Virus record (IMG/VR): IMGVR_UViG_3300028558_000791
Span: 416,839-480,838 of that record
DNA length: 64,000 bases
Source: a virus
Reading direction: 5' to 3' (one strand)
The notes beneath the pieces are model-generated. The model was not told the DNA's origin, searched no databases, and was given only the letters and a program-made list of their open reading frames with translations. This document shows positions 3,660 through 33,709 of the stretch, piece by piece; within the stretch, counting starts at the first letter, position 1, and every line of letters begins with the position of its first letter. Made by a program: the position numbers and the translations under genes.

Positions 3660-3760
3660 GGTAAGTGCGAGCCAGGTAAAAGGGCGCGGCTCCCATTCAC
3701 TGACTACCCAGGCCGGAAGGTGCGACGCCAACCCAAACCGAACGAAAGAGAGATACCGCC

Positions 3761-4456
3761 ATGTCCGACCTTTCCCTCTCGCCCGACAACATCATCGCTC
3801 TCCTCCTCTCGCAGCACACGTCGCACCAGGTCGCACACGAGGCGACCAAGGTGACCACCACCATCATCCGCAACGCGGAGCCCAGCAAGAAGCAGGCCAA
3901 GCAGGCCGAGGCCCGCAAGGGCGAGGTGAAGGCTCCCATTCACAACGGCCCCAAGGTGTTCGGTGTGGCGATGCCCGACCGCAACACGCTGGATGCCAAA
4001 GGCTTCCTGATGGCTTGCCGCGATGCCGGCAAGCGCTCCTTCCAGACGGTCAACGAAGTGACCGGCGAAGTTACCTCGGTCGTCAAGCGTGACGAGCGAG
4101 AGGTGCGCAACGATCTCATCAAGGCGATTCACGCCTACTGCGGTTACGACAACGGCCGTGACTTCGGCTCGCAAGACACGGCGGCCAGGGCGAAGGCCAG
4201 TCGCGAGCTGAGCGGCAAGCCCATCGTCCTCGGTCCCTCGCGAGAGGAGCAGAAGGCGGCCGAGCGGTCAATGACCGGCTACGTTCACGGCATGCCGAAC
4301 TACATGGCGTCCAAGGTGGCCGAGCTGACGGCACGTGAGACGGCCACGGCAGAGGAGCTGATCGATGCCCGCAAGGAGGGCAACGAGGTGGAGGTGGCAC
4401 GCTTGACCGCACTGCTCTCCAACGTGCGAGGCGAGCTGAGCCGCCTCGGTCTCTGA
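3761..4456 (+). CDS. hypothetical protein, 231 aa
   Basis: Soluble, strongly charged protein; a Lys/Ala-rich helix near residues 45-60 and Glu/Arg-rich C-terminal helices (about 180-225). A GAGAGA Shine-Dalgarno precedes the ATG. A copy of the 11-mer falls inside the gene (3933-3943), read in frame as APIH. It is a single-gene cassette: motif at 3690, terminator at 4481-4517. No family recognised; abundant lysine and alanine could fit nucleic-acid binding, but no motif proves it. Confidence 0.75.
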   Translation: MSDLSLSPDNIIALLLSQHTSHQVAHEATKVTTTIIRNAEPSKKQAKQAEARKGEVKAPIHNGPKVFGVAMPDRNTLDAKGFLMACRDAGKRSFQTVNEVTGEVTSVVKRDEREVRNDLIKAIHAYCGYDNGRDFGSQDTAARAKASRELSGKPIVLGPSREEQKAAERSMTGYVHGMPNYMASKVAELTARETATAEELIDARKEGNEVEVARLTALLSNVRGELSRLGL

Positions 4457-30052: not shown

Positions 30053-30087
30053 AGCTACGAGTGAGATTACCTATCAATCTCGTAGCT
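30053..30087 (+). promoter_or_regulatory. GAGT-bulge hairpin, copy 1 (leader of TerD-related gene)
   Basis: AGCTAC-GAGT-GAGATT-ACCTATC-AATCTC-GTAGCT: two helices separated by a one-sided GAGT bulge, 36 nt before the start at 30124. The core recurs at 32743-32771 with a different but still complementary outer stem, so the structure is conserved. A protein-binding or processing site in the mRNA leader is likely. Confidence 0.65.
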
Positions 30088-30123
30088 CCAATGACTTCCA
30101 ACTCAACCGCCACGGAGATTTTC

Positions 30124-32208
30124 ATGACTCTCAACGCCACCAACATCCTTCTTCGTCACAACCTCATCGACATCACTCCGACCTCGGGTGAGGATATCCA
30201 GCTTGCTGGTGACGAAGCGCGGGCTACCGTGCTGATGAATCTCGCCTACTACGGCAGGGGACTCAGTACGGAAGGTTACAAGGCGTTCCTCCAGCTTGGC
30301 AAGGGATCCATCGTCGACTTCTGGGCTCGCATCGAACCCGAGTTGAAAGACATTACGGGAGCCGATCGTAAGATGGGCGACTTCGTTGTCTACAAGAACT
30401 TCCCCAAGGAGGTTCTCGACAAGGACGCAGCGGCCTACTGGATTCCCCAGCTCCTCATGTACTGGGGATTCCCCAAGGACTACTTCACTGACCCGGTTGT
30501 TGCTCGTCCCAAGATGGATAAGCAGCCTGCCGTCACGGTTCTCAAGCTGTCCAAGAAGGATACGCTCAAGAGCATCCTCGATTCTCACGTGCAGTCTCCT
30601 GCTCGTTGGAAGGATCAGGAGTTTCAGGAAGTGGTTTTCCTTTCGGAAACCCTGCCTGTCAACTTCGCCAAGCTGGTGTTCAAGGAGAACCTCGTCAAGC
30701 TGGCGACTCACTTCATGACCAGTGGCCGCAAGGTCAACATCACCACGGCAACCGACGTTCTTCGTCTGGCTGCTGGCCTGAGTGATGGTGACGTGTCGCT
30801 CCGAACCAAGTTCAAGTTCAAGTCTTTCAAGAAGCCGATGCGTCGGTTCCTCCTTTCCATCCTGGAAGGGTGTGCCAACTTGGAAGAGGACGTGGCACGC
30901 CGACCGGAACTGTTCAAGCGCCTGTTGCACAACCTGCATGCAGGTGACTTCAAGCGTTCCTACCCCCGAGTCATCAAGGTGGCCGATGATCTCTACAAGG
31001 ATCGTCTCGTCACTTTCAATGGCAAGGTGGAGAGCATGCTTCTCGCCAAGAACTCCGAGGTTCTCGACGTGCTCTCGACTCGCCCTGGTGACTTCCGAAG
31101 GCGCCTGGTTCACACCTTGGACCTTTTCGGCAAGCAAGCAGCCCAGGCTTTCACGTCTGCTGACGTGTTGAGCAAGTTGACGGTCAATCAGCTCGTTGCA
31201 ACCCGTTCCTTTCTGGGAATGGCCAACGAGAGGAAGGCTCGCATCTTCCCGCCCAAGGGGAATTGGAGTCTTGCCAAGTTTGGTGAGCCCAGGCCGGTCA
31301 CCAAGTCCAGTCTAAAGATCATCGACAAGGCTCTTGCTGCTGCTCTTCGTGAGCGAGTGCCTGCTGTTGGTGTGCTCGACCCTGCCACCAGCAAGGTCAA
31401 GTTGCCGAACAACGGTGAGGAGGGACCGTACACTCGTGGTACTGTCTTCCCGATTCCGGAAGGAACGGACTTCATCCGTACGGCTTCCTACTGGAACGTC
31501 AACGCCAAGGGCTACACCTGGTTCGACAATGGCTGGAACTTCTTCAGCGATGATTGGAAGCCGGTGGGCGCTTGCTGTTGGAGCAGCCCCAAGTTCCCCG
31601 GTCATCGTTGGGACATGAAGGCCAACGACCAGAACACTGGAGCGGTCTTCTCTGGAGACCCGACCATTGCCAAGGGCAAGGCGTGTCAGATGATCGACCT
31701 GTATCCCGAGCAGCTTCGTGCTGCTGGTGTCAGGTACGCTGTCTGGAGCGTTCTCTGCTACTCGGGAATGACCTTCAACGATGCAGAGGAAGTCTTCGCT
31801 GCATTCCAGTGGGGCAAGGATGCCAATAAGGGTAGGCTTTTCGAGCCGGCCCGTTGTCAGCTTGCCATCCCTCTCAAGGGTCAGCAGTTGACCAAGTACG
31901 TCGTTCTCATCGACCTCGATAAGAACGAGATGATCTATCTGGATGCAGGACTCAAGAGCAGCGTTCGTAGCGCTGAGTCGAATGGTCCTCTTCTCCAGAA
32001 GAATCTTCCGGCCTTCATGGAATACATCAAGGCACTTCCCTCTGTCCATGACCTCTTCCGAGAGTCTGTGGATGCAGGTAGCAACACTAAGATCCTCTAC
32101 TCCGATAAGGATGCGAGCCTTCGAGGTGAGTCTGCCTACGTCTTCAAGCAGGAGAACAAGGACAGCAAGTACAAGTCGGTGGACCTGAACGGTCTATTGG
32201 CGAAGTGA
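30124..32208 (+). CDS. large TerD-related cytosolic protein, 694 aa
   Basis: ATG 30124 has GGAG 6 nt upstream; upstream in-frame starts fall in the hairpin leader. The N-terminal half is helical (DFVVYKNFPKEVL, the LRLAAGLSDGDVSL region, RSFKKP-like FKSFKKPMRRFLL, LEEDVARRPELFKRL, STRPGDFRRRLVHTLDLF). The C-terminal third (PIPEGTDFIRTASYWN, WKPVGACCWSS, LRAAGVRYAVWSVLCYSGMTF, VVLIDLDKNEMIYLDAGL) follows the strand order of TerD-like domains. This plan matches large bacterial cytosolic proteins encoded near tellurite-resistance/stress genes; their activity is unknown. It is flanked by two homologous hairpins and followed by a structured-RNA cluster. Confidence 0.68.
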   Translation: MTLNATNILLRHNLIDITPTSGEDIQLAGDEARATVLMNLAYYGRGLSTEGYKAFLQLGKGSIVDFWARIEPELKDITGADRKMGDFVVYKNFPKEVLDKDAAAYWIPQLLMYWGFPKDYFTDPVVARPKMDKQPAVTVLKLSKKDTLKSILDSHVQSPARWKDQEFQEVVFLSETLPVNFAKLVFKENLVKLATHFMTSGRKVNITTATDVLRLAAGLSDGDVSLRTKFKFKSFKKPMRRFLLSILEGCANLEEDVARRPELFKRLLHNLHAGDFKRSYPRVIKVADDLYKDRLVTFNGKVESMLLAKNSEVLDVLSTRPGDFRRRLVHTLDLFGKQAAQAFTSADVLSKLTVNQLVATRSFLGMANERKARIFPPKGNWSLAKFGEPRPVTKSSLKIIDKALAAALRERVPAVGVLDPATSKVKLPNNGEEGPYTRGTVFPIPEGTDFIRTASYWNVNAKGYTWFDNGWNFFSDDWKPVGACCWSSPKFPGHRWDMKANDQNTGAVFSGDPTIAKGKACQMIDLYPEQLRAAGVRYAVWSVLCYSGMTFNDAEEVFAAFQWGKDANKGRLFEPARCQLAIPLKGQQLTKYVVLIDLDKNEMIYLDAGLKSSVRSAESNGPLLQKNLPAFMEYIKALPSVHDLFRESVDAGSNTKILYSDKDASLRGESAYVFKQENKDSKYKSVDLNGLLAK

Positions 32209-32369
32209 ATGAGCAGCAATACTGGAAGGCTAGGACATACTTGTCCTTCCAGTACGCTAAAACTCCTGTCAAAGACAGGAACAACAAACCACCAACTCCT
32301 TCCGAGTGCCTCTTGTATGAGATGGTATTCGAGTATCAACGGGGAGTTGAAAAGTTAGTCGGGCCATGA
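32205..32369 (+). CDS. possible 54-aa protein, or hairpin-rich RNA
   Basis: GTG 32205 overlaps the previous stop and opens a 54-codon frame (MNEQQYWKARTYLSFQYAKT and so on). The same DNA forms strong hairpins: ACTGGAA + GGACA with TGTCC + TTCCAGT (32221-32253) and CCTGTC-AAA-GACAGG (32265-32279). Coding and structural signals conflict; both may be real. Confidence 0.4.
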   Translation: MNEQQYWKARTYLSFQYAKTPVKDRNNKPPTPSECLLYEMVFEYQRGVEKLVGP

Positions 32370-32427
32370 AGATCCTTCCTTCTACAAAAAAATGGAAAAA
32401 CAGGGTCTACGCTTTCCCGACGCTAAC
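32354..32427 (+). ncRNA. tandem structured RNA, unit A
   Basis: P1 GTTAG+TCGGG with CCCGA+CTAAC; single-stranded CCAT; P2 GAAGATCC/GGGTCTAC (one A-A mismatch, one G-U); loop TTCCTTCT ... AAAACA; 3' linker GCTTT. First of four units with the same plan and different stem sequences. Confidence 0.75.
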
Positions 32428-32523
32428 TACCTTCTAGGAATGCTAGCCAGTGTAAGGCTTTCCCTTGGTCCACCTATAAGCGACATGATGCATAGGCGTG
32501 TCGGGGAACCTAGCTAGAAGGTA
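32428..32523 (+). ncRNA. pseudoknot RNA between units A and B
   Basis: A 10-bp perfect closing stem TACCTTCTAG/CTAGAAGGTA (32428-32437, 32514-32523) encloses an H-type pseudoknot: CCTAT (32473-32477) with ATAGG (32492-32496), crossed by CGACA (32481-32485) with TGTCG (32499-32503). It is unlike the four units around it. Confidence 0.65.
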
Positions 32524-32530
32524 CAATGTC

Positions 32531-32604
32531 ATGGGCTATAAGGAGTCTTCCTTCTACTCACAGGCCAAAAGCCTGTATCAAAAATAGACTCCTTGCTTTC
32601 CCAT
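32531..32604 (+). ncRNA. tandem structured RNA, unit B
   Basis: P1 ATGGG/CCCAT; CTAT; P2 AAGGAGTC/GACTCCTT (perfect 8 bp); loop TTCCTTCT containing an extra hairpin ACAGGC-CAAAA-GCCTGT; AAAATA; linker GCTTT. The extra hairpin is an insertion in the variable part of the loop. Confidence 0.78.
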
Positions 32605-32606
32605 AC

Positions 32607-32669
32607 TGATGAGCCATGAGAATCCTTCCTTCTAAAAACGGATAAAACAGGGTTCTTGCCTACTCATCA
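32607..32669 (+). ncRNA. tandem structured RNA, unit C
   Basis: P1 TGATGAG/CTCATCA; CCAT; P2 GAGAATCC/GGGTTCTT (8 bp with two G-U); loop TTCCTTCT ... AAAACA; linker GCCTA. Confidence 0.78.
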
Positions 32670-32671
32670 TT

Positions 32672-32736
32672 GACGAGCCATGTAAGGTCTTCCTTCTAAT
32701 ACATGCTAAATAAAACAGACCTTACGCCTTCTCGTC
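32672..32736 (+). ncRNA. tandem structured RNA, unit D
   Basis: P1 GACGAG/CTCGTC; CCAT; P2 GTAAGGTC/GACCTTAC (perfect 8 bp); loop TTCCTTCT ... AAAACA; linker GCCTT. P1 differs from unit C by a compensatory base-pair change. Confidence 0.8.
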
Positions 32737-32852: not shown

Positions 32853-33116
32853 ATGGAACACATCGAAGACCCTCCTCCTTGTCGTCATTGCGGGCGCTGT
32901 GTTTTCTGTGGTCCTCCATGCTGTGATGGTATGGCTGCTGACCAAGAAGCTTGGTACAAATCTCCAGAGTATCTGGAATTAGTTCGCAAGCAAAAGGAAG
33001 AGAGCATACGTGCCAAGGCAGAAAGAAAAGCTGCCAAGAAATTGAGGCGAGCCAAGCAGCTTGCCGAACGAAACGGCCCTCCCATTCACGGCAACCCGCA
33101 ACCACAAGAAAAATGA
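32853..33116 (+). CDS. Cys-rich protein with basic helix, 87 aa
   Basis: CRHCGRCVFCGPPCC (residues 10-24) could hold one or two zinc ions; a long Lys/Arg/Glu helix follows (ESIRAKAERKAAKKLRRAKQL). AGAGGA just upstream. The end carries motif copy 33079 (PPIHG). Nucleic-acid binding is plausible. Confidence 0.68.
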   Translation: MEHIEDPPPCRHCGRCVFCGPPCCDGMAADQEAWYKSPEYLELVRKQKEESIRAKAERKAAKKLRRAKQLAERNGPPIHGNPQPQEK

Positions 33117-33709
33117 ACAAGCCCTACATCCAACTGAATCAGGACTTTCCCGGAATCGTCAGCCTCTTCATGTACGACAAGGAGACGGCCAAGAACATCT
33201 CTGCATTGGCAGAGACTATCATGCGGCGGGCTCGGCCTCAGGGTCTTTCGGTTGGTCAACGAGAGCTGATTGCTTCGTTCGTCAGCAAGGTGAACGAGTG
33301 CAACTTCTGCTGCGACTCCCATTCAGCGTGCACCGCCGAGTATCTCGGGCAGGACGTGGTGGATGAGGTGATTCGCAATCAGAACGCGGAGTATCTTCCG
33401 CCCCGGATGCAGTCACTTCTCAGTGTGGCGGCATGCGTAGCACTGTTGGATCGTGAGCAGCTCTCGAAACAGATCGCCATTGCCAAAGAGCAAGGGGCGA
33501 ATGACGAGGAGATTCACGATACGGTCCTGGTGGCTGCCATGTTCTGCATGTGCAATCGCTACGTGGATGGTCTCGGCACTACGTTCAAGGCTGGAGAGCC
33601 TGAAGAGGGTGGTCGTGGTCTTGCCAAGTATGGGTACAACTTCGGTATCCGACGCTTCTTCGGTGAAGTCTTTCCGAAGATGTGGTCCAAGTTTTGGAAT
33701 AGACCATGA
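33113..33709 (+). CDS. AhpD-like (carboxymuconolactone decarboxylase family) protein, 198 aa
   Basis: VNECNFCCDSH (Glu62, Cys63, Cys66, His70) is the AhpD-type ExxCxxC...H redox centre within the usual all-helical fold, preceded by LSVGQRELIASFVS. Family members are peroxidase-related enzymes that reduce hydroperoxides. The ATG overlaps the previous stop. In a phage this would counter oxidative stress; relation to the nearby TerD-related protein is speculative. Confidence 0.8.
   Translation: MNKPYIQLNQDFPGIVSLFMYDKETAKNISALAETIMRRARPQGLSVGQRELIASFVSKVNECNFCCDSHSACTAEYLGQDVVDEVIRNQNAEYLPPRMQSLLSVAACVALLDREQLSKQIAIAKEQGANDEEIHDTVLVAAMFCMCNRYVDGLGTTFKAGEPEEGGRGLAKYGYNFGIRRFFGEVFPKMWSKFWNRP

What the first reader, a model, noticed from the sequence alone, without database searches (positions are those of the whole stretch)
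32354..32736. Four tandem homologous hairpin RNAs with covarying stems
Units A-D share one plan: P1, CYAT, 8-bp P2, TTCCTTCT..., AAAACA (AAAATA in B), P2', GCYTW, P1'. P2 has four unrelated sequences, all complementary, and P1 of C and D differ by a compensatory pair. That is strong internal covariation evidence for a structured RNA. Single-stranded parts are conserved, so they are likely the functional surface. I do not recognise it as a known riboswitch or ribozyme. The pyrimidine-rich loop recalls Y RNAs, but only loosely.
Basis: seen in the sequence. Interest (0 to 1): 0.92.

Follow-up and report, generated by a model that had tools for sequence, protein, structure and literature searches.

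The report
New small RNA paired with TerD-type protein
The four hairpins are members of a previously undescribed small-RNA family, found in giant phages and in bacteria of several phyla, that almost always sits beside the gene of one particular large protein, pointing to an unknown RNA-protein machine probably involved in responses to RNA (tRNA) damage.

Summary
The four units are real structured RNAs. A covariance model finds a fifth copy in the same 481-kb phage, inside a tRNA array, and about 250 further copies (some from overlapping records) in phages and bacteria. Stems covary strongly (92-98% paired, against 38-52% when slid), and the loop UUCCUUCU is nearly invariant. No Rfam family matches. 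RNA and gene go together: the same 7 of 194 cyanobacterial genomes have both; all 15 RNA-bearing genomes of 101 in one actinobacterial family have the gene; 9 of 9 held-out plasmid loci carry the RNA; in a motif-only viral scan 40 of 53 true RNAs against 0 of 22 decoys lie by the gene, with 120 of 120 units on its strand. RNA lies 5' or 3' of the gene, or in tRNA arrays 2-5 nt after a tRNA, so it probably acts in trans. In Variovorax the module has a perfect sigma-54 promoter beside rtcR, the sensor of broken tRNA. I infer an RNA-damage ribonucleoprotein, parallel to Ro60/Y RNA but unrelated by sequence. Binding and function are untested.

The parts
32355..32421 (+). RNA unit A: P1 32358-32363/32416-32421, P2 32368-32375/32403-32410, loop UUCCUUCU 32376-32383
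   Evidence: R1 73.7 bits; fold z -3.4
32527..32604 (+). RNA unit B (loop UUCCUUCU 32548-32555; carries an extra 6-bp apical hairpin)
   Evidence: R1 66.1 bits; fold z -5.0
32605..32668 (+). RNA unit C (loop UUCCUUCU 32626-32633)
   Evidence: R1 62.1 bits; fold z -3.0
32669..32736 (+). RNA unit D (loop UUCCUUCU 32690-32697)
   Evidence: R1 70.0 bits; fold z -4.6
30061..32208 (+). Partner protein gene (P0001, up to 715 aa): alpha-helical N-terminal part plus C-terminal TerD domain; MXAN_6230/SCO0854-like. The true start may be a few codons downstream.
   Evidence: NF041916 E 1.9e-53, below its equivalog cut-off; PHROG 33734 E 8e-123, unknown function; AlphaFold pLDDT 90.5; Foldseek TerD 2qz7/3ibz
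32205..32369 (+). Small ORF (54 aa) between the gene and unit A; its 3' end overlaps the 5' arm of unit A; a similar ORF lies at the same place in phage contig L004
   Evidence: no NCBIfam match

Best explanation
The hairpins are trans-acting non-coding RNAs of a new family, matured from longer transcripts (often with tRNAs) and bound by the protein encoded beside them, a two-domain alpha-helical/TerD protein of the MXAN_6230/SCO0854 family. The conserved parts, the internal loop CYAU/(G/A)YUUU and the UUCCUUCU loop with its closing A, are the likely binding surface, while the helices vary freely. The ribonucleoprotein most likely works in the response to damaged or cleaved RNA (tRNA), in phages as an aid against host nucleases and in bacteria as a stress module, in parallel to Ro60/Y RNA. 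Shown: the RNA family, its covariation, its near-obligate genomic pairing with the gene, same-strand layout on either side of the gene, and abutment to tRNA 3' ends. Inferred: expression, processing, physical binding, RNA-damage role.
For: RNA family: 85-unit alignment with 13 of 15 pairs showing double compensatory changes; loop letters 80-85 of 85 at every position; pattern-selected viral set 92.1% paired against 38-52% slid. Partner: cyanobacteria, the same 7 of 194 genomes have RNA and gene (Fisher 5e-13); Micromonosporaceae, RNA in 15 and gene in 32 of 101, 15 of 15 overlap (2e-9); Actinomycetota, gene in 6 of 247, RNA in 5 of these by the genome scan and in the sixth by local search. Motif-only viral scan: 53 stretches score with the model, 40 of them hold the gene; 22 do not score, none holds it; 120 units on the gene's strand, 0 opposite. 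Held-out plasmid loci: 9 of 9. Trans action: units lie upstream, downstream, on both sides, or far away. tRNA link: 10 units (9 loci if one near-duplicate contig is counted once) start 2-5 nt after a tRNA 3' end, the next nearest being 29 nt away. RNA-damage link: the Variovorax module has a perfect sigma-54 site TGGCAC-N5-TTGCA 56 nt before the start codon, beside rtcR (710 bits, cut-off 650) and without annotated rtcA/rtcB within about 11 kb; RtcR senses 5' tRNA halves with 2',3'-cyclic phosphate (PMC7790460). RlaP near the XacN1 gene; tRNA nucleotidyltransferase next to it in RpAliso; RNA ligase near the Vibrio gene.
Against: No expression or binding data. The helical domain has no recognised RNA-binding fold. 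The RNA-repair neighbours are single cases; most bacterial loci have no shared neighbour. Co-occurrence counts are not corrected for phylogeny. Exceptions: Mycobacterium phage WXIN gene without RNA; 60.7-kb phage fragment G021 with RNAs but no gene; one unit 44 kb from the nearest gene; one unit on the opposite strand. Seventeen gene-bearing Micromonosporaceae genomes had no RNA hit with R1 under the stricter filter; at least one gained it with R2 (G028).
Confidence: 0.6

Rival explanations
1. RNA antitoxin of a type III-like toxin-antitoxin pair: tandem RNA units neutralise the adjacent protein.
For: Tandem structured repeats (1-8 units per stretch) beside one gene on the same strand, patchy spread over phages, plasmids and chromosomes.
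Against: The protein is about 700-900 aa with a TerD domain and no ribonuclease or toxin family match in Pfam. Units lie 3' of the gene as often as 5', or far away in tRNA arrays, instead of an RNA-terminator-toxin order. No PADLOC hit.
Confidence: 0.12
2. Cis-acting element of the gene's mRNA (leader, 3' UTR regulator or processing signal).
For: Usually within a few hundred nt of the gene and always on its strand in the viral set.
Against: Found 5' in some relatives and 3' in others, in several copies, and in tRNA arrays far from the gene; the fifth copy of this phage lies directly after a tRNA-Ile, about 404 kb away on the record.
Confidence: 0.1
3. Base-pairing regulator or anti-Shine-Dalgarno mimic: the exposed UUCCUUCU pairs with purine-rich mRNA sites.
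For: The loop is single-stranded in the model, nearly invariant and complementary to AGAAGGAA.
Against: AGAAGGAA occurs in the window 9 times, of which 4 are the units' own complements; the other 5 are near the expected 2.8. A fixed loop from actinobacteria to Vibrio fits protein recognition better.
Confidence: 0.1
4. Decoy RNA: tRNA-processed units draw off or inhibit host anticodon nucleases or other RNA-damaging enzymes, the protein delivering or protecting them.
For: Interleaved with tRNAs in phage tRNA arrays.
Against: Also in bacterial chromosomes without tRNAs nearby; not tRNA-shaped: ARAGORN and the Rfam tRNA model do not call the units.
Confidence: 0.15

Closest known systems
Ro60 (Rsr/TROVE) with Y RNAs, including bacterial YrlA
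   Same: A small structured RNA gene beside the gene of its presumed protein partner; pyrimidine-rich loop; a tRNA connection; in Variovorax next to rtcR, which in Salmonella controls rsr-yrlBA-rtcBA (PMC7790460).
   Different: Protein unrelated to TROVE by profile comparison (hhalign probability 0.3%) and by fold search, with TerD in place of vWA; RNA matches no Y RNA model; TROVE loci examined have no unit.
Type III toxin-antitoxin systems (ToxIN and kin)
   Same: Tandem structured RNA repeats adjacent to one protein gene, in phages, plasmids and chromosomes.
   Different: Large TerD protein without a toxin family match; RNA on either side of the gene or far away; fixed loop and variable stems.
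MXAN_6230/SCO0854 family RING domain protein (NCBIfam NF041916)
   Same: The partner protein's family: all 27 aligned members match it; two members over its cut-off also have the RNA just upstream.
   Different: Phage and several bacterial members fall below the cut-off; P0001 has no Pfam RING match whereas members over the cut-off have Prok-RING_4. No RNA partner is described in the library searched.

Membership tests
Y RNA / YrlA | Match to Rfam Y RNA models | tested here: not met
   Gathering scan finds only a tRNA in the window; permissive scans of the region and of relatives give no Y RNA.
Y RNA / YrlA | Partner protein is Ro60/TROVE | tested here: not met
   hhalign probability 0.3%; no TROVE match in Pfam for 27 members; no Ro60 among the listed PDB fold matches.
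Y RNA / YrlA | Binds its partner and regulates RNA access | not testable with these tools
   Needs biochemistry.
Type III toxin-antitoxin | RNA repeats upstream of a ToxN/CptN/TenpN-type endoribonuclease gene | tested here: not met
   Units on either side; no such domain found.
Type III toxin-antitoxin | Toxicity of the protein, neutralised by the RNA | not testable with these tools
   Needs expression tests.
Riboswitch or cis leader | Fixed position 5' of the regulated gene | tested here: not met
   5', 3', both, or in distant tRNA arrays.
Any Rfam 15 family | Gathering score reached | tested here: not met
MXAN_6230/SCO0854 protein family (P0001) | NF041916 equivalog score of 600 bits | tested here: not met
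   181.8 bits, E 1.9e-53: homologous, but outside the equivalog.
TerD domain fold (C-terminal part of P0001) | TerD fold | tested here: met
   Foldseek to TerD structures 2qz7 and 3ibz, probability 1.00, E 2.4e-4; Pfam TerD itself only E 0.008 in one member.

The most novel reading that the evidence does not exclude
A second, independently evolved Ro60/Y-RNA-like system: a TerD-family protein with a dedicated, tRNA-processed small RNA, switched on by RNA damage, used by bacteria of several phyla and carried by giant phages to survive host RNA-cleaving defences.
Probability: 0.4. Interest if true: 0.95.

Novelty: categorically new. Interest (0 to 1): 0.9.

Why it matters
TerD proteins have long been without a clear molecular role; a dedicated RNA partner would give a large unexplained protein family a testable biochemical function. 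It adds a widespread non-coding RNA family with an apparent protein partner, reaching from giant phages to Actinomycetota, Cyanobacteria, Pseudomonadota, Bacillota, Deinococcota and Bacteroidota, and its link to rtcR and tRNA arrays suggests a second route by which cells and viruses deal with broken tRNA.

Tried and rejected
(1) My first idea, that P0001 is a TROVE/Ro60 protein, failed: no Pfam match, hhalign probability 0.3%, no Ro60 in the fold search. A true TROVE-vWA gene is elsewhere in the same phage, but no unit lies in its fetched flanks. (2) Folding P0001 without an alignment gave a useless model. (3) Rfam scans down to permissive E-values: only chance hits. (4) Enrichment of the loop's complement as a target: none. 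(5) A conserved neighbour in bacteria: none in the neighbouring ORFs scanned. (6) PADLOC: no hit. (7) Papers on SCO0854, MXAN_6230 and neighbours, or TerD with non-coding RNA: none relevant in the library held, which lacks bioRxiv and most subscription journals. (8) The 103-nt element between A and B is no more stable than shuffled sequence (z -1.2).

Full report
1. What is there. The four units lie where stated: A 32355-32421, B 32527-32604, C 32605-32668, D 32669-32736. Each is P1 (about 6 bp, top pair G-C), an internal loop CYAU / (G/A)YUUU, P2 (8 bp ending C-G), a loop beginning UUCCUUCU and ending in A, P2', P1'. B to D abut; A stands about 105 nt apart. The 571-nt region folds far better than shuffled sequence (z -7.9). 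The 5' arm of A overlaps the end of a small ORF (32205-32369) that has a counterpart in phage contig L004; the rest is not in an ORF of 50 aa or more on the + strand.

2. It is a family. The window is the last 64 kb of a 480,838-bp virus record. Looking next to relatives of the upstream gene showed the same motif in other phage contigs. A MAFFT alignment of 15 units gave 98.0% paired cells, against 41-51% with partners slid, and 12 of 14 pairs with changes on both sides. Model R1 then found units in all nine relative loci, including four not seen by pattern, and in all nine viral stretches picked by a sequence pattern that says nothing about pairing. It also found a fifth copy in the same phage. 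The 85-unit alignment has 13 of 15 pairs with double compensatory changes, with UUCCUUCU conserved in 80-85 of 85 units at every position. A set of 150 matches from a second pattern scan is 92.1% paired against 38-52% slid. No Rfam 15 family fits.

3. The partner. The gene ending 146 nt before unit A encodes a protein related to NCBIfam NF041916, MXAN_6230/SCO0854 (E 1.9e-53), and to a PHROG of unknown function. AlphaFold with 27 relatives gives pLDDT 90.5: helical to about residue 432, then a beta-rich domain that Foldseek matches to TerD structures 2qz7 and 3ibz. Structural relatives of most of the chain exist in phages such as LpeD. It is not TROVE. Members over the family cut-off carry a Prok-RING_4 domain; P0001 has no RING match.

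4. How tight the pairing is. In 194 cyanobacterial genomes the RNA and the gene occur in exactly the same seven. In 101 Micromonosporaceae genomes all 15 with RNA have the gene, and 16 of 17 RNA loci lie beside it. In 247 Actinomycetota genomes all six with the gene have the RNA, the sixth by local search. One further weak RNA hit, G331, has no gene and may be false. Starting from the RNA pattern in viral contigs, 53 stretches score with the model and 22 do not; 40 of the 53 and none of the 22 hold the gene, and all 120 units there are on its strand. Nine loci from named bacterial plasmids, not used in building the models, all have the RNA (the Hymenobacter one only at E 7e-4). Isolated phages XacN1, Weasels2, RcXuper, RpAliso and, weakly, LpeD have it; WXIN does not. 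Counts are not corrected for phylogeny, and E-values from these models are rough.

5. Layout. Units lie 5' or 3' of the gene with similar frequency, on both sides, or in distant tRNA arrays, with 1-8 per stretch. That argues against a cis leader. Ten units begin 2-5 nt after the 3' end of a tRNA, the next nearest being 29 nt away; the fifth copy here follows a tRNA-Ile directly. Co-processing with tRNAs is the natural inference.

6. Function. In Variovorax sp. SRS16 the gene and two units are divergent from a short operon ending in rtcR (710 bits, cut-off 650), with a perfect sigma-54 site 56 nt before the start codon and no annotated rtcA or rtcB within about 11 kb. In Salmonella RtcR is activated by 5' tRNA halves with cyclic phosphate and controls rsr-yrlBA-rtcBA (PMC7790460). 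XacN1 has RlaP, an RNA-repair polymerase family, near the gene; RpAliso has a tRNA nucleotidyltransferase next to it; Vibrio vulnificus has an RNA ligase near it. These are single cases, but they point the same way. I therefore favour a ribonucleoprotein of the RNA-damage response, at about 0.4 for that specific role, about 0.75 for physical partnership, and near certainty for the RNA family itself.

7. Place among known systems. It works perhaps like Ro60/Y RNA, but it is not a member: the defining protein and the RNA models both fail. It resembles type III toxin-antitoxin loci only in having tandem RNA repeats next to a gene. I found no description in the library searched, which has gaps.

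Noticed in passing
G000:C1:35734-37419 (L052:1735-3420): The same phage encodes a TROVE plus vWA (Ro60-type) protein of 561 aa, followed by a 138-aa ORF that looks like a cytidine deaminase; no unit of the new RNA lies in the fetched flanks.
   Followed up: partly
G000:C1:42000-49000 (L051): Array of 13 ARAGORN tRNA calls, some odd (one without a clear anticodon), holding the fifth RNA unit and, just after it, a repeated element GCCTGCCCACATGGNTGGAAACTGTGG in two copies (L051 about 3700-3790).
   Followed up: no
window 32424-32526: Element between units A and B closed by a 10-bp stem (ACCTTCTAG/CTAGAAGGT); overall fold not better than shuffled (z -1.2).
   Followed up: partly
window 32205-32369: 54-aa ORF directly after the partner gene, with a counterpart at the same place in L004 (MTDQQYRAARLYL...); no family match.
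   Followed up: partly
L255 (NZ_LR594667.1:352000-380000): rtcR divergent from the RING-TerD gene with a perfect sigma-54 promoter and no annotated rtcAB nearby: a possible RtcR regulon without RtcB.
   Followed up: partly
window 32951-33706: Carboxymuconolactone decarboxylase-family protein downstream of the array, unusual cargo for a phage.
   Followed up: no
L079 and L073: Micromonosporaceae members in which the RNA lies 5' of a longer (900-1000 aa) version of the protein and the CYAU motif reads CUCCU.
   Followed up: no
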